Source: Nocardioides alpinus (GTDB lineage Bacteria; Actinomycetota; Actinomycetes; Propionibacteriales; Nocardioidaceae). From it: DNA of 64,000 nucleotides. This document shows positions 36,516-47,461 of the stretch, piece by piece (the first letter of the stretch is position 1; every line of letters begins with the position of its first letter). The stretch spans positions 124,001 through 188,000 of the forward strand of contig NZ_FOKC01000001.1 in NCBI RefSeq assembly GCF_900112035.1. The letters are read 5' to 3'. The position numbers and the translations under genes are program-made. The notes beneath the pieces were generated by a model, which was not told the DNA's origin, ran no database searches, and saw only the letters and a program-made list of their open reading frames with translations.

Positions 36516-38022
36516 CACAGGGCGAAATCAACCGGTCGTCGCAACACCTCGATCACGGAGGAGTTCGGCGATGGCAACGGCAGACTGGAGCAAGAAGACC
36601 AGCGACGTACCTGAGGGTCTTCGCCGGCAGTGGCGCGCTGACCGGGCGCTGCGGCCAGCTATGCGCTCGCCCGGGCGTCCGGATCCGTCCCGGGTGGTGC
36701 AGCGGCAGTTCTGGCGGCTGATCGCTACGGGCATCACGTCGGCAGAGGCGGCGCTGGCGGTTGGCGTGTCAGTGCCGGTCGGGACCCGCTGGTTTCGCCA
36801 CGCTGGCGGTATGCCGCCTATCTCACTGGCCGAGCCCACCGGCCGCTACCTGAGCTTCGAGGAACGCGAGGAGATCGCGATCCTGCATGCCCGGGACCAA
36901 GGTGTGCGCCCGATCGCCCGCGCGATCGGGCGTGACCCCGCGACGATCTCACGCGAGCTACGCCGCAACGCTGCAACTCGTGGCGGGAAGCAGGAGTACC
37001 GGGCCACGGTGGCCCAGTGGAAGGCGCAGCAGGCGGCCAAGCGCCCCAAGACCGCGAAGCTGGTTGAGAACCCGCGACTGCGTGAGTATGTCCAAGATCG
37101 GCTCGCTGGCGACGTTCGTCGTCCTGACGGCACGATCGTTCCCGGTCCGACGCCGCCTGCGTGGAAGGGCCTGAACAAGCCACATCGGCAGGATCGACGG
37201 TGGTCGACAGCGTGGAGTCCGGAGCAGATCGCGCATCGGCTGAAGGTGGAGTTCCCCGATGATGAGTCCATGCGCATCAGCCACGAGGCGATCTACCAAT
37301 CGCTGTTCATCGAGGGCCGTGGCGCGCTCAGACGCGAACTGGTCACGTGTCTGCGCACCGGCCGTGCGCTTCGGCAGCCGAGGGCCAGGTCGCAGAACAA
37401 GCCCGGTGGGCATGTCACGACCGACGTGGTTCTCAGCGAGCGTCCTGCCGAAGCCGAGGATCGCGCCGTCCCCGGTCACTGGGAGGGCGATTTGATCATC
37501 GGAACCGGGAGGTCGGCGATCGGCACCATCGTCGAGCGCAGTAGCCGCTCAACGCTCCTGGTTCACCTGCCACGGATCGAGGGGTGGGGCGAGAAGCCGT
37601 ACGTGAAGAACGGACCATCGCTCGGCGGCTACGGGGCAATCGCGATGAACGCCGCGCTGACAGCGTCAATGACCAAGCTGCCCGAGCAGCTACGAAAGAC
37701 CCTGACGTGGGACCGCGGCAAGGAGCTCTCGGGCCACGCACAGTTCGCGTTGGAGACCGGCACGAAGGTGTTCTTCGCCGACCCCCACTCGCCCTGGCAG
37801 CGGCCAACGAACGAGAACACCAACGGTCTGCTGCGCCAGTACTTCCCCAAGGGAACCGACCTGTCCCGCTGGTCTGCTGAAGACCTCGAGGCCGTAGCTC
37901 ACGCGCTCAACAACCGGCCCCGCAAGATCCTCGGATGGAGGACACCTGCCGAGGTCTTCGAGGAGCAACTACGCTCCCTCCAACAGCCCGGTGTTGCTAC
38001 GAGCGGTTGAACTGGCCCAGTG
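36516..38022 (+). mobile_element. Complete IS30-family insertion sequence
   Basis: Terminal inverted repeats at 36516-36548 (CACAGGGCGAAATCAACCGG start) and 37990-38022 match at 27 of 33 positions. They enclose one full transposase gene. A clear target duplication is not visible. The element sits between two groups of TTGCGGAC repeats, as if it had inserted into the control region of the neighbouring integrase. Confidence 0.85.
36571..38010 (+). CDS. IS30 family transposase
   Basis: 479 aa from ATG 36571, full length. The N-terminal helix-turn-helix contains GRYLSFEEREEIAILHARDQ and IGRDPATISRELRRNA (HTH_38). The catalytic core has Asp in GHWEGDLIIGT, Asp in TWDRGKELSGH, and Glu in TNENTNGLLRQYFPKGTDLS, the DDE triad with the N-E-N context typical of IS30. 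Extra N-terminal residues before the HTH (about 90) are longer than in classical IS30. No frameshift, so it may be active. Confidence 0.93.
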   Translation: MATADWSKKTSDVPEGLRRQWRADRALRPAMRSPGRPDPSRVVQRQFWRLIATGITSAEAALAVGVSVPVGTRWFRHAGGMPPISLAEPTGRYLSFEEREEIAILHARDQGVRPIARAIGRDPATISRELRRNAATRGGKQEYRATVAQWKAQQAAKRPKTAKLVENPRLREYVQDRLAGDVRRPDGTIVPGPTPPAWKGLNKPHRQDRRWSTAWSPEQIAHRLKVEFPDDESMRISHEAIYQSLFIEGRGALRRELVTCLRTGRALRQPRARSQNKPGGHVTTDVVLSERPAEAEDRAVPGHWEGDLIIGTGRSAIGTIVERSSRSTLLVHLPRIEGWGEKPYVKNGPSLGGYGAIAMNAALTASMTKLPEQLRKTLTWDRGKELSGHAQFALETGTKVFFADPHSPWQRPTNENTNGLLRQYFPKGTDLSRWSAEDLEAVAHALNNRPRKILGWRTPAEVFEEQLRSLQQPGVATSG

Positions 38023-38260
38023 AACGAACGCGAGGGTCACCGAGCGGGCTGCGTGCTCCGAGATGTGTGCACATGAGTCAGGATGCCACTTCACGAGGCG
38101 ATACTGGCTTCGAACCAGTCCGCCCGCACTTCGGCGACATGTGCTCTGACCAGCATTCTAGGGCGCTGACCTGCAAGTTTACGCGTTTCCGCCTCAGTCG
38201 CTGGCGGACTCTTGCGGACACGAATACCCTTCTGGTGGACACGAACTCGAGGGAACGCCT
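38023..38260. other. Integrase upstream region with tRNA T-arm-like and arm-type motifs
   Basis: Non-coding, 238 nt. On the reverse strand a T-arm-like hairpin (ACTGG-TTCGAAG-CCAGT, around 38103-38119) is followed by CGCCTCG, as in the 3' end of a tRNA, but no complete tRNA can be built. TTGCGGAC recurs at 38212-38219, with TGGCGGACT at 38202-38210. Together these look like part of an attachment region upstream of the integrase. Confidence 0.4.
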
Positions 38261-39511
38261 GTGGCGCAAAGTTCCGACCGACGTAAGTTCGGACAGATCA
38301 CGAAGCTGCCCAGCGGACGCTATCGGGCTCGCTACGCAGACCCCGATAGCCGCGAGACCGCCGTCGGAGAACCGCTTCGTTACAACGCGCCTCACACCTT
38401 CGAGTCCAAGGACGATGCAGAGGCGTGGCTGGTGGATGAGCGACGCATGATCACCGCGGGGTCGTGGAATCCCCCGTTGGCGCGACGGGCAAGCAGGCTT
38501 GCCGCGCCGGTGACAGTCGGCGACTACGCACCGCGCTGGCTTGCGGGCCGGAAGGTGAAGGGGCGCCCGCTCGCCGAGCGCACTCGCGACCATTACCAGG
38601 ACCTGCTCGATCGCTTCATCCTGCCGACCTTCGCCGACGTCGGGCTCAAGGATGTCAGTCCTGAGGCGGTCGCCGAGTGGTATGACACTGCCGCCGACAC
38701 GCCTACGTACCAGGCGCACGCCTACTCGCTCTTGCGCGCGATGATGCGCACCGTAGCCGACCCAACCAGGAACTGTGGCGCCGCGCTGATCCCATTCAAC
38801 CCATGCGGCATCTCTGGCGGCGGCTCGTCCGGAACCAAGCGACGCATCCGCCCGGCCACCGCCCAAGAAGTAGCCGCCATCGTGGCGGCCATGCTGGAGC
38901 GTCACAGGCTGATGGAGCTGCTCGCCGACGGCTGCGCGCTCCGCTTCGGCGAATTGGCTGAGCTTCGCCGCTCGGACATCGACATTCCCCAAGGAGTTAT
39001 CCGGGTCCGCCGCGGCGTCGTCCGCTCTAGGTCCGCCGGTGTCATCGCCAAGGCTCCCAAGAGCGAGGCTGGCATCCGCGACGTCCCGATCCCACCACAC
39101 ATCATCGAGGCGGTGCGGGAACACACGAGGCATCACGCCGCGCCTGGCGCTCAGGGGTTGATCTTTCCCGGGCGCAACACTGAGCACCTGTCCCCCAGCG
39201 CCTTCTACGGCAAGGTCTCCAAGAAGCGTCGTGGCAAACTATCGACGAGGGGATGGGGCTGGTACGAAGCTCGTCGCGTCGCTGGCCGCGAGGACCTTCG
39301 CTTCCATGACCTCAGGCATGGAGCCCTGACCGAAGCCGCCCGGCACGGCGCCACTCTCGCCGAACTCATGGCACTCGGTGGACACTCGACCAACCAAGCG
39401 GCCATGCGCTACCAGCAGGCCGCGTCCAGTCGGCTTGCCGAGTTGGCGCGCAAACGTGCGGAAGCTCGCGGCTGGACCGCCAGCGAAGCAGCGGCAGCAG
39501 ACGAGATTTGA
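38261..39511 (+). CDS. Tyrosine recombinase / phage-type integrase
   Basis: 416 aa from GTG 38261. N-terminal arm-binding domain (KFGQITKLPSGRYRARYADP), core-binding domain (TVGDYAPRWLAGRKV to about residue 190), then a catalytic domain with Arg in ALRFGELAELRRSD, HDLRH, GGHST (H-x-T) and Tyr in MRYQQAAS. All catalytic residues are present. It is transcribed into the following cassette, so it likely mobilised or once mobilised the neighbouring accessory genes. No excisionase gene is seen next to it. Confidence 0.92.
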   Translation: MAQSSDRRKFGQITKLPSGRYRARYADPDSRETAVGEPLRYNAPHTFESKDDAEAWLVDERRMITAGSWNPPLARRASRLAAPVTVGDYAPRWLAGRKVKGRPLAERTRDHYQDLLDRFILPTFADVGLKDVSPEAVAEWYDTAADTPTYQAHAYSLLRAMMRTVADPTRNCGAALIPFNPCGISGGGSSGTKRRIRPATAQEVAAIVAAMLERHRLMELLADGCALRFGELAELRRSDIDIPQGVIRVRRGVVRSRSAGVIAKAPKSEAGIRDVPIPPHIIEAVREHTRHHAAPGAQGLIFPGRNTEHLSPSAFYGKVSKKRRGKLSTRGWGWYEARRVAGREDLRFHDLRHGALTEAARHGATLAELMALGGHSTNQAAMRYQQAASSRLAELARKRAEARGWTASEAAAADEI

Positions 39512-39902
39512 ATCCGAATCCACTACTAGGCGAAAGATCGCGACTTCGACTCTCGATGGGCACGCAAGCGCAGATGTCATGCGACGTCTGGCCTGACCTG
39601 ACCAGCAGACTTACCCGGTACTCCCTCGGCTTCGAGCGCGAAGCGGCCTCTCAGCTACCGACTGCGCGCCTCGCATCCCTCAGGTAATGCAAGATGCTGC
39701 ACATCCCCTTCCCATGTTGTCCCCCGCCAACACCCGATAGGGAGGGTGCAAACTGCAGGGGCCCGCCGTCCACAGCCTCAGGCTCTGGCTGTCAGCGGAT
39801 CATGCGGCAGACCCGTTCCTGTCGGAGAGGTCAACTAGGATCCTGCCATCGGGCAGGCGAGTGCCGTTGTCACATGTGAGACCAACCGAGAGGGGGACGC
39901 AG
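39512..39902. other. Non-coding stretch between integrase and sigma-like gene
   Basis: 391 nt without a supported gene. It should hold the promoter for the cassette. GAGGGGGACG immediately before GTG 39903 is the ribosome-binding site. I see no att core that repeats cleanly elsewhere in the window. Confidence 0.4.
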
Positions 39903-40586
39903 GTGCCATCGGTGAGTCCGCTGCACGACTTCGCCGAACGTGCGACCGCGTTGCTCGTGCGCATGGCCAGTGATCCCGACCCGGCGTTGGCAAGCGCATA
40001 CGACGAGCTTCTCTTCGAGCCCCTGTACCGAGTGATTCGGCAAAGGGGCACGAGCCTGGCAATGCAGGCGGCAAAGCGGATCGGCCCAGACGTGACCGTT
40101 CCGGCCGTCCAACCGGGCGACCTAGACGCCATCGCGATCGAGACCACGGTGTCGGCACTGGAACGAGCCCGGAACTCGGCGGGACGGTTCGTGGCCGAAC
40201 GTGGTGATGGGGCGAGCTGGGCGTTGGGTGCCGCTGGGACCGCCTACATCGATGTGGTGCGCGACTTCTACGGTGTCCGGCGCAAGCTGCAGGCCGTCCC
40301 CGTCGACCCGCAGTCCATGACGGAGGTGGCGGACACACACCGCACGGCGGTCAGTCCGGAGCAGGTGGTCGAGACTCGTGCCGCGTTGGAAGCGGCATTG
40401 AGCCGGCTCACCCCCGAGGAGCGGTATGTCGTCCTGGCCCGGAAGCAGTTCGGTCTCAGCTATGCGGAAATCGCGACGTACCTGTTCGGTCAACCCGATG
40501 CCACCCGACGAGTCGACAACCTGTGGCAGTCTGCGCGCCGCAAGCTGACTGAGGCGGAGCGCGCGTGGAACGCGGCTGATGAGTGA
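39903..40586 (+). CDS. ECF-like sigma factor / sigma-70 family protein
   Basis: 227 aa from GTG 39903 (VPSVSPLHDFAERATALLV) with a strong GAGGGGG upstream. The N-terminal half has region-2-like helices (FEPLYRVIRQRGTSLAM) and the C-terminal part a region 4: LTPEERYVVLARKQFGLSYA, then EIATYLFGQPDATRRVDNLW, a clear HTH. Proteins of this type may direct RNA polymerase to the following cassette. No anti-sigma gene is adjacent. It overlaps the next gene by 8 nt. Confidence 0.75.
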   Translation: MPSVSPLHDFAERATALLVRMASDPDPALASAYDELLFEPLYRVIRQRGTSLAMQAAKRIGPDVTVPAVQPGDLDAIAIETTVSALERARNSAGRFVAERGDGASWALGAAGTAYIDVVRDFYGVRRKLQAVPVDPQSMTEVADTHRTAVSPEQVVETRAALEAALSRLTPEERYVVLARKQFGLSYAEIATYLFGQPDATRRVDNLWQSARRKLTEAERAWNAADE

Positions 40587-41673
40587 CCGGGATCCGTCCT
40601 CGGAGCAGGCCGCAGGCCTGACCGCGGCGGATGGGAGCGCCGGACGACCTCTGCCGGCCCAGCCGGCCACGGGTCCCTCTCAACGATGGCGATCGCTGGC
40701 CGAGCTCGAACGAGCGACCGTCCTCTACCGTCCCACGTGGTGGCGCACTGACATCGATGCCATGGCGTTGCTCACGAGCGGGACGGCCCCGGGTCGCCTT
40801 GGTCTGGTGTCGGCGAGGGCGGCTTCCGGCATCGTGACGACTACGGACGTCTACGGCGACGGTCGCGGCGCCGGTGGCTACCTTGCGCTCCGGCGGCCCG
40901 TGCACGCCGCCATCCTGGCGGACTGCGTACCGGGGGTGTCGACCGATCCGTTTACGCGTGTGCCGGATCGCACGTCGCCGGAGAGCCGACGACCGATGGC
41001 CTTCTTCACGATCGGGGCACCCGGTGCCGGGAAGACGTCCATTTTGCGCAGCATGGTCGAGGCGTTCCGCGTCGACGTTTTCCGCAACGCCGGGGACGCA
41101 TCCCCGTTTCCGGAAACCGGCGACCTTGGGGCCGACGCCGGCGACCGCGCCACCTCCCTCCCGGTGCTTGCGCCGTACAGCGTCATCGATGCGGACCGCG
41201 TGCGCCAGGCACTGCCCGAATACGCGTACGGACTGGGGTCGCTGGTGGTGCAGCAGGAGTGTTTCGACGTCACCTACGACCTGGTACTTCCCGCCGCCAT
41301 CGACCGCGGTGAAGACATCGTCTACGACACGATCGGCCGACCGGCTTCGATGGACGCGGCCGTGGACCGGCTTGCAGACGCCGGGTACGACGTGCATCTG
41401 ATCCACGCGGCGTGTCCCGAGGACGTGTGCCGTTCGCGCACGGAGCACCGCGCGCTGCGCGACGGTCGCCTCGTGGACCCCGCGATGCTGGCCGAGGCGA
41501 TCCAGGACGCCCGGGAGTCGCTTGCGTCTTTGACGCGAACGGGCCAGCTGGCCGGATGGCTCGACGTGGAGACGTCGGACGGCGACTCGCCGCGACGTGC
41601 CGGCGGTTCGCCACCGTGGGAGTCCGCTTTCGACCTCTGGCTTCAGGAGCGCCCCCGTGGCTTACCCGCTTGA
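40579..41673 (+). CDS. Zeta-toxin-type P-loop kinase
   Basis: 364 aa from ATG 40579. The N-terminal 140 residues are unassigned. Walker A GAPGAGKTS is at residues 146-154, followed by SVIDADRVRQALPEY (the Asp/Arg block of zeta toxins and polynucleotide-kinase-like folds) and GEDIVYDTIGRPASM. Zeta toxins phosphorylate UDP-N-acetylglucosamine; others phosphorylate different small substrates. No epsilon-type antitoxin is seen. It overlaps the sigma-like gene and is followed by a 119-nt gap. Confidence 0.75.
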   Translation: MSDRDPSSEQAAGLTAADGSAGRPLPAQPATGPSQRWRSLAELERATVLYRPTWWRTDIDAMALLTSGTAPGRLGLVSARAASGIVTTTDVYGDGRGAGGYLALRRPVHAAILADCVPGVSTDPFTRVPDRTSPESRRPMAFFTIGAPGAGKTSILRSMVEAFRVDVFRNAGDASPFPETGDLGADAGDRATSLPVLAPYSVIDADRVRQALPEYAYGLGSLVVQQECFDVTYDLVLPAAIDRGEDIVYDTIGRPASMDAAVDRLADAGYDVHLIHAACPEDVCRSRTEHRALRDGRLVDPAMLAEAIQDARESLASLTRTGQLAGWLDVETSDGDSPRRAGGSPPWESAFDLWLQERPRGLPA

Positions 41674-41792
41674 GGGGCAATTGTCGGGTACCAGTGACTC
41701 GGTGCGCACCGGTATGCCACTATGCGATTTCCCAAGTCTTCCAATTTGTGTGCCGAGTCCTCGGCGCGCACACTTGATCAATGGGGGTCGAG

Positions 41793-42341
41793 ATGAGCGG
41801 CATTCGCGGAACCTCGGACGGTGGCGACACAGTCCGTGCCGATCCGGCGGTCCGAGACGCGCTCGCTCGGGCCTCCTATGCGTATGACCGCACCCTCCTC
41901 GAATACGAGGACGCACTGGTGACCCAGGACCAGACCCGACGCACTTTCGCGTCCGCGCGCTTGGCTGAAGCCACCCGAGACCTCGCCGCAGCGCAAGCCG
42001 CACTCGCTGCCGCGCGCGTCGCGCCGGAACACACCAGGGACGCCCGCGCATCAAAAGACCGCGAAGGCCGACTCACCTTTGACGAGCTGTTGAGCGATCC
42101 GACCCAGCAGCTCGACTCCACGAGTGCAGTCCTCGAAAGCATCCTGAGGTATCAGATCGCGCCGCAAGCCACCGCGTCGGCCGCAGGGAACTGGGTGCCG
42201 CAGGCGCCCTCCGAGGTCCGCACTGCAGAGTACGTGCGGCAGCGCCTAGGGGCTTCCACAGCTGCATCCACGGCCGGGCGTCCGGCCCGCTACGCGCGTC
42301 ACGGCCACTTCACTCCGGGCCGTCAAGCCGCGGCCGGCTGA
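41793..42341 (+). CDS. Ala-rich helical protein of unknown function in the Ub-like cassette
   Basis: 182 aa from ATG 41793 (MSGIRGTSDGGDTV); ATG 41781 would add four residues, but GGGGGTCGAG lies well for 41793. The middle part (DRTLLEYEDALVTQDQTRRT, then ARLAEATRDLAAAQAALAA) has long helices with heptad-like Ala/Leu spacing, probably a coiled coil. The tail is basic (RPARYARHGHFTPGRQ). No cysteines or enzyme motifs and no recognised family. Its location between the kinase and the Ub-like gene suggests an accessory or structural role. Confidence 0.6.
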   Translation: MSGIRGTSDGGDTVRADPAVRDALARASYAYDRTLLEYEDALVTQDQTRRTFASARLAEATRDLAAAQAALAAARVAPEHTRDARASKDREGRLTFDELLSDPTQQLDSTSAVLESILRYQIAPQATASAAGNWVPQAPSEVRTAEYVRQRLGASTAASTAGRPARYARHGHFTPGRQAAAG

Positions 42342-42516
42342 ACAGAAGCCTTACCTCCTCTCCCCGAGCCTGGCGTGGCCGGTGCCGTCGCGCACCGACC
42401 CTCTCCCCGCTCGGACGACTGCGCCGAAGAAAGTTCGAACGCGACCTAGGGAATGTTCGTCCTCGTTGCCTATGACCTAGTGACGGGGCAAACACGAACA
42501 CTTCATGGGAGGCATC
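42342..42516. promoter_or_regulatory. Leader region before the ubiquitin-like gene
   Basis: 175 nt, no gene. Contains a GGGAGG ribosome-binding site 5 nt before ATG 42517. A separate promoter for the four conjugation genes is plausible here because this is the longest gap inside the cassette, but I cannot assign -35/-10 boxes with confidence. Confidence 0.4.
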
Positions 42517-42780
42517 ATGCCGAAGCCGGACAACCACCTGGACCTGGTCGTCGTCGTATCGGGCGCGGTGCAGAACGTCCGCATCAACATGCGTGAGCGA
42601 CTCGAGCACGCTGTTCGCGAAGCCCTCCGCGAATCCGGGAATGAAGGACAGCCGCCCGGCGAGTGGGAGCTGCGCAGCGAGGCCGGGGAGCTACTCGACC
42701 TGGAGATGACTGGAGAACAAGCTCGACTGCAGGACGGGGCCACGCTGTTCCTCAGCCCCCGCGCCGGCGCGGGAGGGTAA
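42517..42780 (+). CDS. Ubiquitin-like protein with C-terminal Gly-Gly
   Basis: 87 aa from ATG 42517 (MPKPDNHLDLVVVVSGAVQN), chosen because GGGAGG is 5 nt upstream; ATG 42505 would place the start on the SD itself. Strand-helix-strand layout fits a beta-grasp fold: LDLVVVVSG, NVRINM, a helix RERLEHAVREALRES, then GEWELRSEAGELLDLEM and GATLFLSPRAGAGG. It ends in exposed GG, as needed for adenylation and conjugation by E1. Member of the bacterial Ub-like group (Prok_Ub/DUF2604-like). First of four conjugation genes. Confidence 0.85.
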   Translation: MPKPDNHLDLVVVVSGAVQNVRINMRERLEHAVREALRESGNEGQPPGEWELRSEAGELLDLEMTGEQARLQDGATLFLSPRAGAGG

Positions 42781-42833
42781 TTGCGCCCGGCGTCCATCTG
42801 CTTGTCAGCCCCGCATCGACCTTGGAGAGCCGC

Positions 42834-43661
42834 ATGACGATCGAAGAGGCCGACACATCGAGTGCTTCCGCCCAGAGCGTCGACACTTCGCGTGGACCAC
42901 TGCTCGTGCCGCACGAGGTGTCGCGAGCCAAGTTCCACCAGCAGCTGGAACGGTTCGAGACCAATCGGAACGCCTTTGCCCGGCGAGGCTGGCTGCTCCT
43001 TGACCACGGCGACTTGTGGGTCGAGGTGGGGTTCTTGCACCAGGTGCCGATGGCGTCACTGTCCGTGCCGGTGATGACCGCGTGCGTGCGCATCGACTAC
43101 TGGAACTTCGACCTGTGGCCGCCGTCAGTGATGTTCGTGGACCCGCTGACCCGTGAACCTGCGCCGCCATTGGTGAGGGCGCCGGACAAGGTGTCCGACA
43201 CCGAAGTCCGCGATGCTCTGATCGACGGCCATCCCGAGACTGGGATGGCTTTCTTGTGCATCCCCGGCATTCGGGAGTACCACTCTCACCCGCAGCACAA
43301 CGGAGACGACTGGTTGTTGCATCGTGGGCTTCACGAAGGCGATCTCGCCGTGCTGTGCGACCGCATCTGGCGCCGGATGGCACGTAACGTCGTGGGTCTG
43401 GACATCGCCGTCAAGCTCCTTCCGGTCGGCAGCCGCCTCGACTTGACGTTGCTTCAAGGGGACCCCGATGCGCTGCAGCGACAGATGCAAGCCATCCAAG
43501 GTGACGCTGTCGCGGCAGCGCCTCCGATGTCGCCCGCCGCCGCCGAAGAGCCTGCGCACGATGCCTCGATCGGACCCCTCCCCTCCGCGGTCGACCTTCC
43601 GGGCGACGACTTGGCGGCTGCGCCGGCGCCAGAACCCATCCAGGAGGGCGAACAGGCGTGA
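42834..43661 (+). CDS. CEHH-motif protein, possibly E2-like conjugating factor
   Basis: 275 aa from ATG 42834 with GGAGA upstream. Residues C142, E148, H150 and H152 in LCIPGIREYHSHPQHNGDDW fit the predicted metal-binding CEHH domain found in bacterial Ub-like loci. The same stretch also reads like an E2: YWNFDLWPPSVMFVDP (YP-x-PP-x-V-x-F block, W95 P96 P97), H133-P134 and C142 nine residues on, near the HPN-to-Cys spacing of E2 enzymes. The C-terminal third (from about 225) is Pro/Ala-rich and disordered. The stop overlaps the JAB start by 4 nt. Role is inferred. Confidence 0.72.
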   Translation: MTIEEADTSSASAQSVDTSRGPLLVPHEVSRAKFHQQLERFETNRNAFARRGWLLLDHGDLWVEVGFLHQVPMASLSVPVMTACVRIDYWNFDLWPPSVMFVDPLTREPAPPLVRAPDKVSDTEVRDALIDGHPETGMAFLCIPGIREYHSHPQHNGDDWLLHRGLHEGDLAVLCDRIWRRMARNVVGLDIAVKLLPVGSRLDLTLLQGDPDALQRQMQAIQGDAVAAAPPMSPAAAEEPAHDASIGPLPSAVDLPGDDLAAAPAPEPIQEGEQA

Positions 43662-44152
43662 AGCTGACTTCAGTAGAACGAGTCCTCATATCCATGCGGG
43701 TGCTGCAACCGACCCTCGACTTCCTCGCCGAGCGTGGCGCACAAGGACATGAGGGGTTTGTGGTCTGGGGCGCGCGACTACGCGACCAAGGAACCACCCT
43801 CGAATTCACCAGCCCCTACGTTCCTCATCAGACGGCCCACACGACGACCAAGGGCCTGCTGGTCACCGTTGACGGCGCCGCACTCGACCGGATGAACAGG
43901 GCGTTCTATGCACGCGGCGAAATAGCCGCCGGTCAGGTGCACTCCCACCCGACGGACGCCTACCACTCCGAGACCGATGACCACTTCCCCCTGGTAACCC
44001 TGCGCGGCGCGATCAGCCTGGTCGTCCCCGACTTCGCCCAGCACGGGCTCGCCTCGTCGGACCGGTGGGCCTGGTATCGCCTCCTCGGACTCGGTGAATG
44101 GGAGAGCCTGCCCCCTCACGTGCAAGTCGCGATCACGGAAGAGGACGCTTAG
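43658..44152 (+). CDS. JAB/JAMM metalloprotease (deconjugating or processing isopeptidase)
   Basis: 164 aa from GTG 43658, overlapping the preceding stop. JAMM motif H95-S-H97-P with S104 and D107 in AYHSETDDHF binds zinc; the catalytic Glu is likely in HEGFVVWGAR (E32). Acts like Rpn11/JAB domains: trimming the Ub-like tail or cutting its conjugates. The Ub-like protein already ends in GG, so conjugate removal is the more likely job. Confidence 0.9.
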   Translation: MKLTSVERVLISMRVLQPTLDFLAERGAQGHEGFVVWGARLRDQGTTLEFTSPYVPHQTAHTTTKGLLVTVDGAALDRMNRAFYARGEIAAGQVHSHPTDAYHSETDDHFPLVTLRGAISLVVPDFAQHGLASSDRWAWYRLLGLGEWESLPPHVQVAITEEDA

Positions 44153-44154
44153 CC

Positions 44155-45921
44155 ATGGGACTTCCCCCGTTCTTCTCCCGCGTCGCCGACGCGCTGCGCC
44201 CGGTCACGGACGTCGACCCCGCCGTGCTGGCGAGCAAGCTGTCCGACGTCACCGTCGAACTGCACCTCCCGGACATGACCGACACCTCGGCTGTTCGCGA
44301 CGCCGCGTTGATGGCCGGCAACCTGCTTGCACGCCTCTATCCGACGCTCGAGGTGCACGCCGCCCCGGCCAGCAGCCTCGCACGTGAGGTTGCCGCGCTC
44401 GCCAAGACCATCAACCCGGACATCGGGCTCATTATCGTCGATGCGTCCGGCACCGCAGACGTCGAGTTCGAGGACGCATCTGCGACGTCGAGCTCGCAAA
44501 CAGACGCCGGCGCGCTCGGACGGCAGACATCTGCCACGAATGGGACAAGGGTCGCCCTCGTCATCGGGTGGCGCGCCCAGGTCCAGAGCAACGAAGACGA
44601 GCGGCCACGTACTGGCGTGCCTCCCCAGGTCCCGAGCGGTCGCGTGGTCCACGTCAACGCGTCGGGATGGGTGGCAACGGTCGACCATGCCGAGGACGAG
44701 AGTGTCGAGGCGTCCCCAGTGCCAGGGACTCCCCTGGCCTGGCTTGCCGCGGCTGCCCTCGGGGTCGGCGAAATGTTCCGAGCCGTCTTCGCCGACGAGC
44801 TCGGCAGCCGCGGGCGACACCACGCGCAGCCAGGCCGGTTGTCCATGCTGCCCGGCACGGCTGCCACCGCCGTTCCCGATGGCGGCCCGCCTCAAAGCGA
44901 AGACCCTCGCCTCAGTGCGCGAGGAATCGACATCGGTCACGTCCATCTGGCCGGAGCTGGTGCTATCGGCGAAGCATTCGCGCTGGCTCTGCGCGCCTCG
45001 GAAGCTACCGGGCGTCTCACCGTGGTGGAGCCGGAAACGGTCACGCTGTCGAACCTTCAGCGTTACGTGCTCACCGATGCTGCATCCGTCGACGTGCCCA
45101 AGGGCGAGATCATCAGGAACCTGTTCGCCGGCTCTGACGTGTCAGTGGAGATCGAGGAGGCACGGTGGGGTGATCGCTCCAGTCATCTTGGTGTGCAGAA
45201 GGTCGCGGTAGCGCTCGACTCGGCACGGGATCGCATCGCCGTTACGTCTACCTTGCCGCAGGCCGCGTACAACGCTTGGACTCAGGTCGCCGACCTGGGT
45301 TGGTCACGACACGAAGACTTCGGCACCGCTCCATGCCTCGCGTGCCTGTACTACCCCACAACGGCGCGACCTAGCGACCATGAACTGATCGCAGCAGCCA
45401 TCGGGCAGCCGACTCTCCGCGTGCTGGGATATCTGGTCTACAACCAGCCCATCGGCTTCCCGCTTCCGCACGTGCCAGCCATTCCGGACCTCCCCGCCAA
45501 TCAAGAAGACGTACTGCATTGGATCCAGGTCCCGTTGATCGACGACCTCTTGGCGGCAGGTGTCATTAACGAGGAGGAACGGGACCGTTGGGCTGCCAGC
45601 ACCGTGGGTGCGCTGTATCGCGACGGTGTGTGCGCCGGGGGTGTTCTGCCCGTTGGGAACCTGCCAGGCGAGGTGTTGGTGCCGTTGGCACACCAGTCAG
45701 CCTTGGCTGGCTTCATGCTGGCGGCGGAAGTGCTAACCGCCTCGGAAGAACTGCGCGGCGAGCGCGACGCAGCAGTCGAGCGCCGCTTCGATGTCCTTCG
45801 CGGCTTCCCGCAGGTAATCGCCCGTCCACGAGAGCGGACCCCCGGGTGCCTGTGTTCCGACCCGGACTACGTACGTGGCGCCATCCGACTACGGAGGCCA
45901 CCGCAGACAACCGACAGTTAA
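44155..45921 (+). CDS. E1-like (ThiF family) activating enzyme with N-terminal extension
   Basis: 588 aa from ATG 44155, three nt after the JAB stop. Residues 1-260 are an unassigned alpha/beta extension (VALVIGWRAQV, VVHVNASGWVATVDH). The adenylating domain starts at HLAGAGAIGEAFALALRA (267-272 GAGAIG), then VVEPETVTLSNLQRYVLTD and ALDSARDRI. C394-x-x-C397 (CLAC) and C565/C567 (CLCSD) may bind zinc. A Cys in DGVCAGGVLPVGNLPG is a candidate thioester site. Activates the Gly-Gly tail of the Ub-like protein with ATP. Confidence 0.85.
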   Translation: MGLPPFFSRVADALRPVTDVDPAVLASKLSDVTVELHLPDMTDTSAVRDAALMAGNLLARLYPTLEVHAAPASSLAREVAALAKTINPDIGLIIVDASGTADVEFEDASATSSSQTDAGALGRQTSATNGTRVALVIGWRAQVQSNEDERPRTGVPPQVPSGRVVHVNASGWVATVDHAEDESVEASPVPGTPLAWLAAAALGVGEMFRAVFADELGSRGRHHAQPGRLSMLPGTAATAVPDGGPPQSEDPRLSARGIDIGHVHLAGAGAIGEAFALALRASEATGRLTVVEPETVTLSNLQRYVLTDAASVDVPKGEIIRNLFAGSDVSVEIEEARWGDRSSHLGVQKVAVALDSARDRIAVTSTLPQAAYNAWTQVADLGWSRHEDFGTAPCLACLYYPTTARPSDHELIAAAIGQPTLRVLGYLVYNQPIGFPLPHVPAIPDLPANQEDVLHWIQVPLIDDLLAAGVINEEERDRWAASTVGALYRDGVCAGGVLPVGNLPGEVLVPLAHQSALAGFMLAAEVLTASEELRGERDAAVERRFDVLRGFPQVIARPRERTPGCLCSDPDYVRGAIRLRRPPQTTDS

Positions 45922-46218
45922 GCCGCCTGAGCCCACTGTTCGATCTCAGCGATGGCCGTCGGGCCTGCTGCACGGATCGGTGCCATGGTGTCCGTGCCGG
46001 AGCGGTTCTGTACCAACAAGGGCAATGTGCACCTTCACGCTCAAAGCGCCTTGGTAGACCTCGCCTGCGAACACAGAATAGGGAGTGTGCACGAGCTCGG
46101 CCGGCGGTCTATCAAACCGATCCAGGAGGCTGGCGGTTCCGCAATTGCGGTTCGTCCACTCGGTGTGCACGTTGCGTGAGATTGTTGCGCGAACATTCCC
46201 TCAGCCCGAAGGCCGCCC
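45922..46218. other. Non-coding stretch after the E1 gene
   Basis: 297 nt, no gene. At 46027-46065 it carries GTGCAC and GCTCAAAGCGC in a layout about 72 percent identical to 47099-47137 at the IS3 remnant. A promoter for the following lipoprotein gene is likely here. Confidence 0.35.
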
Positions 46219-46887
46219 GTGAAGCACGCACCAACCGTCCTGCTCGTGCTGCTGGCGACAAGCCTGGCCGCGTGCGCCGCTAACGAGCACCGCACCGCTG
46301 ACTCGACCGAAAGCGCCATGGAGAAGTCTGATTCGGGTCCGGCCGATGAGGCTAGGGGCGCCGACCCGGATGAGAACTCGCCTCAAAGCGAACCGGAGCC
46401 GGCGGCTAACTGTCCCGTCGGCACGTGGCTGGCTGGTGACGACGACCTCGACGACTACTTCGACTCCGCCGCGCTAGCGATGGCGAAGTCGATGCCCAGC
46501 GAAGCCGAAGTCGTTACGCCTACCGATGCAGACACAGAAGCCAGCGGCAACCTCACGATCACCTTTCGAGCCGACCACACCTACCAGGTTGAGATCGACA
46601 AGCTCGTCAACGCCGCGCCCGCAGTCGGATACTCCAGCAGCTTCACGGGGACCGAGACGGGAAAGTGGACTGGTGACGCATCCGCGATCACGATGACGTC
46701 CACTGGTGTGACCGTCGAGGAGGCCACGCAAACCGTCGGAGGGAAGACTCAGCCGATGGACCCAGACCTGCTCGGACCGAATGGGGGCTCGGGGCTCAGC
46801 TGGGGGGAGTTCAACATCATCTGCGAAGGGTCAAACCTGACGTCTTCTAGCAAGGGTGGTGCCGTGCTGACCATCCACGCCAGTTAG
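46219..46887 (+). CDS. Lipoprotein of unknown function
   Basis: 222 aa from GTG 46219. Signal peptide with lipobox: HAPTVLLVLLATSLAACAAN (cleaved before Cys, which is then lipidated). After a charged linker (SEPEPAANCPVG) the mature domain has beta-rich sequence (NLTITFRADHTYQVEI, GTETGKWTGDASAITMTS). No recognised family. It follows the Ub-like cassette in the same orientation but with its own gap, so linkage is uncertain. Confidence 0.65.
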   Translation: MKHAPTVLLVLLATSLAACAANEHRTADSTESAMEKSDSGPADEARGADPDENSPQSEPEPAANCPVGTWLAGDDDLDDYFDSAALAMAKSMPSEAEVVTPTDADTEASGNLTITFRADHTYQVEIDKLVNAAPAVGYSSSFTGTETGKWTGDASAITMTSTGVTVEEATQTVGGKTQPMDPDLLGPNGGSGLSWGEFNIICEGSNLTSSSKGGAVLTIHAS

Positions 46888-47098
46888 GCAGGTAGCCGGC
46901 CGACGCCAGGAGCGACCTGCGGCCTGGGCGCCCGCAACTGCAACCTCCACCCGGAGGAACGCGCCTCGCGGTTCCCGCAAGCGCCCGCCGCCAGCGGCCC
47001 CCGCGCCGACAGATTGGCCTCACTCGGCGGGCCGGGCGACCTGCTCTTGCGGGAGTTGCGTCGAGATCACGTCGTCCGCCGATACCAACATCGGGACG
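46888..47098. other. Non-coding stretch before the IS3 remnant
   Basis: 211 nt without a supported gene; probably debris around the insertion-sequence remnant. Confidence 0.3.
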
Positions 47099-47461
47099 GT
47101 GCACTCCCCCGCTCAAAGCGCGCCCGTAGATGGCGCCGGTCAGTACCTCGTCGTGAGGTACACCCAGCGGCTGGCCGAGGCTGGCGCTGTCGCGTCCGTC
47201 GGGTGCACGGGCGACTCCTACGACAACGCCCTGGCCGAGGCCTTCAACTCGCTGTTCAAGGCCGAACTGGTCCGCAACAAGGGGCCGTGGAAGAGCATCG
47301 ACGACCTCGAGATCGCCGTCGCGGAGTACATCGACTGGTTCAACCACCGCAGGCTCCACGGCGAGATCGGACTCGTCCCACCCGCTGAGCACGAGGGCAA
47401 GTACTACCGGCACAACCCCGCACCGGCTACCGTCGGCGCGTCAGTTCAGAGCCTCCACTGA
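47099..47461 (+). pseudogene. IS3-family transposase, C-terminal remnant
   Basis: About 120 codons ending in TGA at 47459-47461. From about 47137 it reads QYLVVRYTQRLAEAGAVASV, CTGDSYDNALAEAFNSLFKA and YIDWFNHRRLHGEIGLVPPA, the C-terminal DDE part of IS3/IS150-type OrfB (including the catalytic Glu context). Residues before QYLV do not match and the N-terminal half is missing, so the gene is 5'-truncated. Confidence 0.85.

What the first reader, a model, noticed from the sequence alone, without database searches (positions are those of the whole stretch)
42517..45921. A four-gene bacterial ubiquitin-like conjugation locus (Ub-like GG, CEHH/E2-like, JAB, E1)
Seen: a beta-grasp-like 87-aa protein ending in Gly-Gly, a CEHH protein, a JAMM protease (H95-S-H97, S104, D107) and a ThiF-like E1 (GAGAIG 267-272). 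The last three are coupled by a 4-nt overlap and a 2-nt gap. Known: such sets were predicted computationally in bacteria and some relatives act against phages. Inferred: this is a complete activate-conjugate-cleave module on accessory DNA, and few of this gene arrangement have been studied.
Basis: partly seen in the sequence, partly recalled or inferred. Interest (0 to 1): 0.88.

Follow-up and report, generated by a model that had tools for sequence, protein, structure and literature searches.

The report
Bacterial ubiquitin-like antiphage gene cassette
An actinobacterium carries a complete gene set for tagging proteins with a ubiquitin-like protein, of a kind already known to protect bacteria against viruses, and here it travels in one block with three extra genes, among them a toxin-like kinase.

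Summary
The four genes are bilABCD, the BIL (bacterial ISG15-like) conjugation system: each protein matches the solved Bil proteins, the catalytic residues are present, and BilA is predicted as a beta-grasp whose best structural matches are BilA. 'CEHH' is the E2 active site of BilB, not a metal site. So the core is a new member of a known kind. What was missed: the unit is larger. Three upstream genes on the same strand (ECF-sigma-like, zeta-toxin-family kinase, helical-looking protein) keep their order with bilABCD in a second, diverged lineage; of 215 genomes of the genus, the sigma and helical genes match only in the three that carry canonical bil. Two species (one with a broken bilD frame) share, within the 17-20 kb compared, one 6.3-kb block of these seven genes and a 180-bp piece. 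The block is bracketed by direct copies of a ~76-bp repeat that also borders other accessory blocks in the genus. Most likely an antiphage conjugation system with its own regulator and a linked toxin-like kinase; activity, target and the role of the extra genes are untested.

The parts
39714..39750 (+). upstream partial copy (model positions 40-76) of the ~76-bp direct repeat; upstream border of the block
39861..40586 (+). ECF-sigma-like protein, 241 aa (sigma region 4); likely regulator
   Evidence: Pfam Sigma70_r4_2 7.8e-8, above cut-off; 62.6% identical homologue in the same place in L041/L042, 47% in L011; match in 3 of 215 genus genomes
40579..41673 (+). zeta-toxin-family kinase, 364 aa, 8-nt overlap with the sigma gene
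   Evidence: Pfam Zeta_toxin 4.7e-18, above cut-off; Walker-A-like GAPGAGKTS; homologues 44% in L041/L042, none at 1e-3 in L011; match at 1e-10 in 1 of 386 phylum genomes, our own
41781..42341 (+). helical-looking protein of unknown family, 186 aa (helical by eye, not modelled)
   Evidence: homologues beside bil in L041/L042 (46-47%) and, over 48 residues, in L011; match in 3 of 215 genus genomes; no Pfam family above cut-off
42517..42780 (+). bilA: ubiquitin-like modifier, 87 aa, ends Gly-Gly without a tail
   Evidence: DUF2604 5.3e-19; PDB BilA 1.2e-10; predicted beta-grasp, best fold match BilA 8tyx_A
42834..43661 (+). bilB: E2, C142/E148/H150/H155, with about 80 residues of C-terminal extension
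   Evidence: Metal_CEHH 2.2e-30; PDB BilB 3.2e-26; alignment
43658..44152 (+). bilC: JAMM deconjugase, E32/H95/H97/S104/D107
   Evidence: PADLOC BilC 1.4e-13; PDB BilC 2.1e-20
44155..45921 (+). bilD: E1, GAGAIG 267-272, catalytic C493, four further Cys 394/397/565/567
   Evidence: PDB BilD 4.6e-42; ThiF 7.5e-9
46016..46091 (+). full copy of the ~76-bp repeat; downstream border of the block
47088..47149 (+). partial copy (model positions 1-62) of the repeat, beyond a one-gene segment

Best explanation
A BIL conjugation system. BilD (E1) adenylates Gly87 of BilA and takes it onto C493; BilA passes to C142 of BilB (E2) and is joined to a target, by analogy a phage tail protein; BilC removes it. 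Because BilA is made already ending in Gly, BilC should be needed for deconjugation, not for maturation. The operon forms a seven-gene mobile block with a sigma-like protein, a zeta-family kinase and a helical-looking protein; I infer that the sigma-like protein (perhaps with the helical one) controls expression and that the kinase is a linked second-line effector or an addiction element. Shown by sequence: identity of the four parts, conserved catalytic residues, predicted fold of BilA, the seven genes shared as one block. Inferred: chemistry at this locus, target, defence role, role of the three extra genes.
For: PDB, Pfam and PADLOC matches to Bil proteins (PADLOC has a match for C and D only). 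Catalytic residues unchanged in BilB (36 of 36 rows) and BilC (34 of 34); E1 Cys in 33 of 37 rows, the other four being 2 Leu and 2 gaps (rows include the window, two genomes read twice, and fragments). BilA fold. E1 tree of 30 rows puts the window in a 4-row clade, 100/100. Same seven-gene order in L041 and L042; L042 proteins 44-71% identical to the window's. L041 and L042 share one 6.3-kb block of these genes plus a 180-bp piece. Sparse distribution: PF14455 in 2 of 58 relatives, 3 of 396 phylum genomes, 4 of 294 family genomes, one of the last below the cut-off (the window's genome is counted each time). Action of a BIL system on the phage central tail fibre: passage in PMC11364771.
Against: No expression, conjugation or phage data. 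No sigma-70-type promoter pattern, and terminator-like sites no more than in shuffles (2 against a mean of 2.6), in 39400-46300; weak evidence either way, since actinobacterial promoters may differ. The seven-gene order rests on two lineages only (L041 and L042 are 96% identical over the block), and L041 has a broken bilD frame, so that copy may be inactive. L011 has the sigma and helical genes on the other strand and no zeta match, so zeta is not a fixed part; 31 of 35 other loci searched show no match to the three genes (some loci are short). BilA also has a weak, below-cut-off match to the non-conjugated YukD family (4.4e-5).
Confidence: 0.82

Rival explanations
1. The four bil genes are an independent BIL operon and the three upstream genes are an unrelated passenger (for example a toxin-antitoxin-like module) that was picked up once and hitch-hikes.
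For: Gaps of 107 and 175 nt before the helical gene and bilA; zeta not found in L011, and 31 of 35 loci searched show no match to any of the three genes.
Against: Order kept across two lineages at 44-71% identity; sigma and helical genes kept in a third lineage; none of the other 212 genus genomes matches the sigma or the helical gene.
Confidence: 0.4
2. BilA acts as a sulphur carrier in biosynthesis (ThiS/MoaD-like) with a ThiF-like E1 and a JAB protease.
For: The E1 also matches MoeB/ThiF models, far below their cut-offs.
Against: A separate E2 with its active site, an E1 with the Bil catalytic Cys, best matches to Bil proteins; no biosynthetic family among the five neighbouring proteins scanned.
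Confidence: 0.03
3. A conjugation system with a housekeeping or stress role rather than phage defence.
For: Bub, a related pathway, has not been demonstrated to protect against phage (passage of PMC13373217).
Against: Sparse, mobile distribution; a BIL system tested by others acts on phage (passage).
Confidence: 0.15

Closest known systems
BIL system, bilABCD (PDB 8tyx, 8tyy, 8tyz, 8tz0; Collimonas member in the literature)
   Same: all four proteins, gene order, catalytic residues, predicted beta-grasp fold of BilA, Gly C-terminus
   Different: small clade of mostly actinobacterial records; BilB with a longer C-terminal extension than the two actinobacterial relatives L004 and L005; BilA without a C-terminal tail, as in 11 of 33 loci; three extra genes in the same block
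Sinorhizobium NGR234 plasmid operon (DUF2604, 'metal-binding', Mov34, E2-family-C E1), prototype of type 6c of Iyer 2006 (passages)
   Same: same four genes in the same order; BilA 38% and E1 28% identical
   Different: no sigma, zeta or helical gene in the annotation of the 10.5 kb read (that gene table is incomplete)
CBASS type II Cap2/Cap3
   Same: E1, E2 and JAB activities
   Different: there the E2 is fused to the E1 (passage of PMC12355090) and a nucleotidyltransferase is present (recalled); here the E2 is separate and no nucleotidyltransferase family appears among the five neighbours scanned
zeta/PezT toxin family
   Same: Pfam Zeta_toxin above cut-off, Walker-A-like lysine, conserved Asp and Arg columns in four sequences
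   Different: no epsilon antitoxin recognised by Pfam among the neighbours; only a weak profile match to the zeta structure (0.057)

Membership tests
BIL (bilABCD) | beta-grasp modifier BilA ending in Gly | tested here: met
   (fold is a prediction)
BIL (bilABCD) | E2 BilB with Cys-Glu-His-His active site | tested here: met
   meaning of the motif from a passage of PMC11354881
BIL (bilABCD) | JAMM protease BilC | tested here: met
BIL (bilABCD) | E1 BilD with glycine-rich ATP site and catalytic Cys equivalent to C417 of the solved BilD | tested here: met
   C493 aligns with chain residue 417; C417 named in a passage of PMC11354881
BIL (bilABCD) | N-terminal inactive adenylation domain in the E1 | tested here: inconclusive
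   N-terminal stretch aligns weakly to 8tyz_A 2-100; not modelled
BIL (bilABCD) | gene order A-B-C-D | tested here: met
BIL (bilABCD) | covalent conjugation and phage protection | not testable with these tools
   needs bench work
CBASS type II | CD-NTase gene and E1-E2 fusion | tested here: not met
   separate E2; no nucleotidyltransferase family among the five neighbouring proteins scanned
zeta toxin (40579-41673) | family score above Pfam cut-off and Walker A | tested here: met
   65.8 bits against 22.3
zeta toxin (40579-41673) | paired epsilon/PezA antitoxin | tested here: inconclusive
   upstream sigma-like gene overlaps by 8 nt but matches sigma families, not an antitoxin family, by Pfam
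zeta toxin (40579-41673) | zeta fold | tested here: inconclusive
   two-row alignment, mean pLDDT 52; not searched further

The most novel reading that the evidence does not exclude
In this clade ubiquitin-like conjugation is wired to a zeta-family kinase: the sigma-like and helical proteins sense or relay infection, and BilA conjugation (or its failure) controls the kinase, giving a second, self-limiting layer of defence. The whole seven-gene unit is one gene cassette of an undescribed integron-like cassette system of Nocardioides whose ~76-bp sites sit in direct orientation between accessory and defence modules.
Probability: 0.2. Interest if true: 0.78.

Novelty: new variant of a known kind. 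Interest (0 to 1): 0.47.

Why it matters
It gives a BIL clade with a linked regulator-like gene and toxin-like kinase, so the questions of how BIL is switched on and what follows if tagging fails become testable in one block. The repeat-bounded blocks, if a real cassette system, would explain how such modules spread in a genus of actinobacteria.

Tried and rejected
Viral contigs for BilB and for the zeta protein: no relatives by the peptide patterns used. Phage records for BilB: none. Plasmids for the sigma-like protein: none. A zeta homologue on two Rhodococcus plasmids; on the one read it lies near BREX-2 genes and its neighbours do not match our helical protein. No tRNA in the window that would mark an integration site. 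A consensus fold of the repeat as a single strand: no pairs predicted, though single copies fold on their own (no shuffles), so likeness to attC is by arrangement only. The repeat as the end of the neighbouring IS3-type element was considered and not favoured: its position relative to that element differs between L041, L090 and the window (my reading). No recombinase family shared by three or more genomes was seen in the clusters printed, apart from transposases. The zeta structure model was too poor to use. No paper in the held library has both 'zeta toxin' and 'ubiquitin-like'; the main BIL papers are not held, so this is not proof of absence in print. Searches for Nocardioides with integron, attC, tadA or defence island gave nothing that bears on the repeat in the 15 of 21 listed (listing only).
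Full report
What was checked. My own first start for bilB was one base off; the right start is 42834. The host is taken to be Nocardioides, because two genomes that the tools call 'same genus' have contigs with the lengths and bil genes of N. glacieisoli and N. oceani records.

What the four genes are. Pfam: DUF2604 (5.3e-19, with a weak YukD match below cut-off), Metal_CEHH (2.2e-30), Prok-JAB (8.5e-4, below its cut-off), ThiF (7.5e-9) and a weak Prok-E2_C. PADLOC: BilC 1.4e-13 and BilD 5.4e-8; no PADLOC match for the first two proteins. PDB sequence search: BilA 1.2e-10, BilB 3.2e-26, BilC 2.1e-20, BilD 4.6e-42 (alignments in 20-23). The E1 Cys of the solved BilD, C417 (named in PMC11354881, passages read), aligns with C493. 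The same passages say that the CEHH residues of BilB belong to the E2 active site, Cys and the last His directly, Glu and the other His in a structural role. BilA was modelled with 16 sequences (mean pLDDT 88.1, order beta-beta-alpha-beta-beta); the best matches in the PDB are two BilA chains, then designed or natural ubiquitin, SUMO, NEDD8 and ISG15 entries.

How general. A scan of genome contigs with an alignment of four BilB sequences gave 31 loci. Among the ORF rows aligned, BilB C142, E148, H150, H152 and H155 are the same in 36 of 36, the five JAMM residues in 34 of 34, and the E1 Cys in 33 of 37 with two Leu (L039, L040) and two gaps (rows include the window, two genomes read twice, and fragments). 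The E1 tree of 30 rows (L014, L041, L042, L044 left out as broken or repeated; L034 and L037 hold no bilD) puts the window with N. glacieisoli, L011 and L012 (100/100); L011's record is titled Bacillus but 'unverified'. BilA in 33 distinct loci: 11 end at the last Gly, 18 have tails of 1-14 residues, 3 are fused in frame to BilB, 1 is the divergent type; 20 of the 33, one a partial frame, have at most 30 residues before the domain even by the longest reading. The Ub-like gene of L040 was found by eye and is not in that count. A one-domain BilA without tail is therefore not special; NGR234 BilA is also about one domain long (98 aa). In six loci bilC lies on the other strand.

The larger unit. 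Upstream on the same strand are an ECF-sigma-like gene, a zeta-toxin-family kinase gene that overlaps it by 8 nt, and a gene for a 186-aa helical-looking protein. In G022 (L041) and N. glacieisoli (L042, the same genome as L010) the same three stand in the same order and strand before bilABCD: sigma 62.6%, zeta 44%, helical 46-47% identical to ours. In L011 the sigma and helical genes are there on the opposite strand and zeta gives no match at 1e-3; 31 of the 35 loci searched show none of the three. Of 215 genomes of the genus, 3 match the sigma gene and the same 3 the helical gene; these are the three genus genomes in which canonical bil was found, a fourth having the divergent type (the genome sets were drawn separately, so not each of the 215 need have been tested for bil). 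In 210 genomes of the order the sigma gene again matches in those 3 only, at 1e-6. In a phylum sample of 386 only our own genome matches the zeta gene at 1e-10; G022 and G587 were evidently not in that sample. L041 and L042 share one stretch of 6292 columns at 96% that begins and ends 85-146 bases outside the seven genes, and a 180-bp piece, and nothing else at E 1e-5 in the 17 and 20 kb compared. The seven genes thus appear to have moved as one block. L041 has bilD in two overlapping frames, so that copy may be inactive.

The borders. The block is bracketed by direct copies of a ~76-bp sequence (window 39714-39750 partial, 46016-46091 full; a further partial at 47088-47149). The core pattern with up to 3 mismatches occurs twice in the own genome and in none of 100 shuffles of the window. 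A sequence-only model made from 9 copies, window copies included, matches 26 of 209 genus genomes at E 1e-4. I read 20 stretches around a choice of these matches. On them and on L041, L042 and the window, 18 of 18 neighbouring pairs closer than 20 kb have the same strand; the one further pair on a contig, 36.6 kb apart in G735, is on opposite strands. Segments between copies hold SIR2 and AbiV proteins, a RelA/SpoT protein, and an IrrE-type peptidase with the divergent bil set (families), but also what look like metabolic blocks (my reading of ORF starts, not searched). Partial copies tend to be of two kinds, positions about 25-41 to 76 at one end and 1 to about 62 at the other, not without exceptions. 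This looks like site-specific insertion of blocks, but no recombinase was tied to it and no excision is shown.

Mechanism. From the known family: E1 adenylation of the BilA Gly, thioester on BilD then BilB, transfer to a target. The reported target of a Collimonas BIL is the phage central tail fibre (passage of PMC11364771 citing Hor 2024). For this locus target and activity are inferred. Regulators in front of BIL operons are known in other bacteria (CapK and CapS upstream of five Bil operons, PMC13373217 passages), which makes a regulatory role of the sigma-like gene plausible. No paper of the held library holds both 'zeta toxin' and 'ubiquitin-like', and the main BIL papers could not be read.

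Verdict. Core: a clear BIL member. New here: the seven-gene block and its borders. I call it a new variant of a known kind because the extra genes share the block; someone who counts only bilABCD would call it a new member.

Noticed in passing
window 39714-39750, 46016-46091, 47088-47149; L040-L042, L086-L105: A ~76-bp direct repeat borders accessory blocks in Nocardioides: 26 of 209 genomes match the model; 18 of 18 neighbouring pairs under 20 kb are on the same strand, one pair 36.6 kb apart is not. Possible cassette system without a known recombinase.
   Followed up: partly
L041 13489-13800, L092 14138-14497, L088 14185-14622: In three genomes a partial copy of the repeat lies at the start of an ORF reading VLAGDNISARFVVPTV..., which by recall resembles the C-terminal part of a CpaF/TadA pilus ATPase, followed by genes that by recall look Tad-like; the gene may be an insertion target.
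   Followed up: partly
L039 9483-12575 (Knoellia koreensis), L040 9537-12431 (Nocardioides oceani): A diverged bil-like set on a long branch: the E1 has Leu where the catalytic Cys stands and the Ub-like protein ends in QDG, not GG. Works by other chemistry, or does not conjugate.
   Followed up: partly
L016 9254-10600, L017 3191-4357, L022 9338-10567: BilA and BilB in one open frame, Ub-like domain first: possible polyproteins that BilC would have to cut after the Gly.
   Followed up: partly
L041 6865-8756: bilD of G022 is in two overlapping frames: pseudogene or sequencing error.
   Followed up: no
window 46219-46887: A lipoprotein-like gene alone between two repeat copies, as a one-gene segment; no Pfam family above cut-off.
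   Followed up: no
window 36571-39511 and 47099-47461: An IS30-type transposase-like ORF (by recall) and a tyrosine integrase (Pfam) upstream of the block, and a cut IS3-type transposase piece (by recall) running into the last repeat copy.
   Followed up: no
L052 7950-8852: A zeta-family homologue (31%) on a Rhodococcus opacus plasmid lies near BREX-2 genes and, by eye, an HTH-like and an IrrE-like ORF.
   Followed up: partly
L024, L026, L027, L031, L033, L036: bilC lies on the opposite strand beyond bilD in these six loci, so deconjugation may be expressed apart from conjugation there.
   Followed up: no
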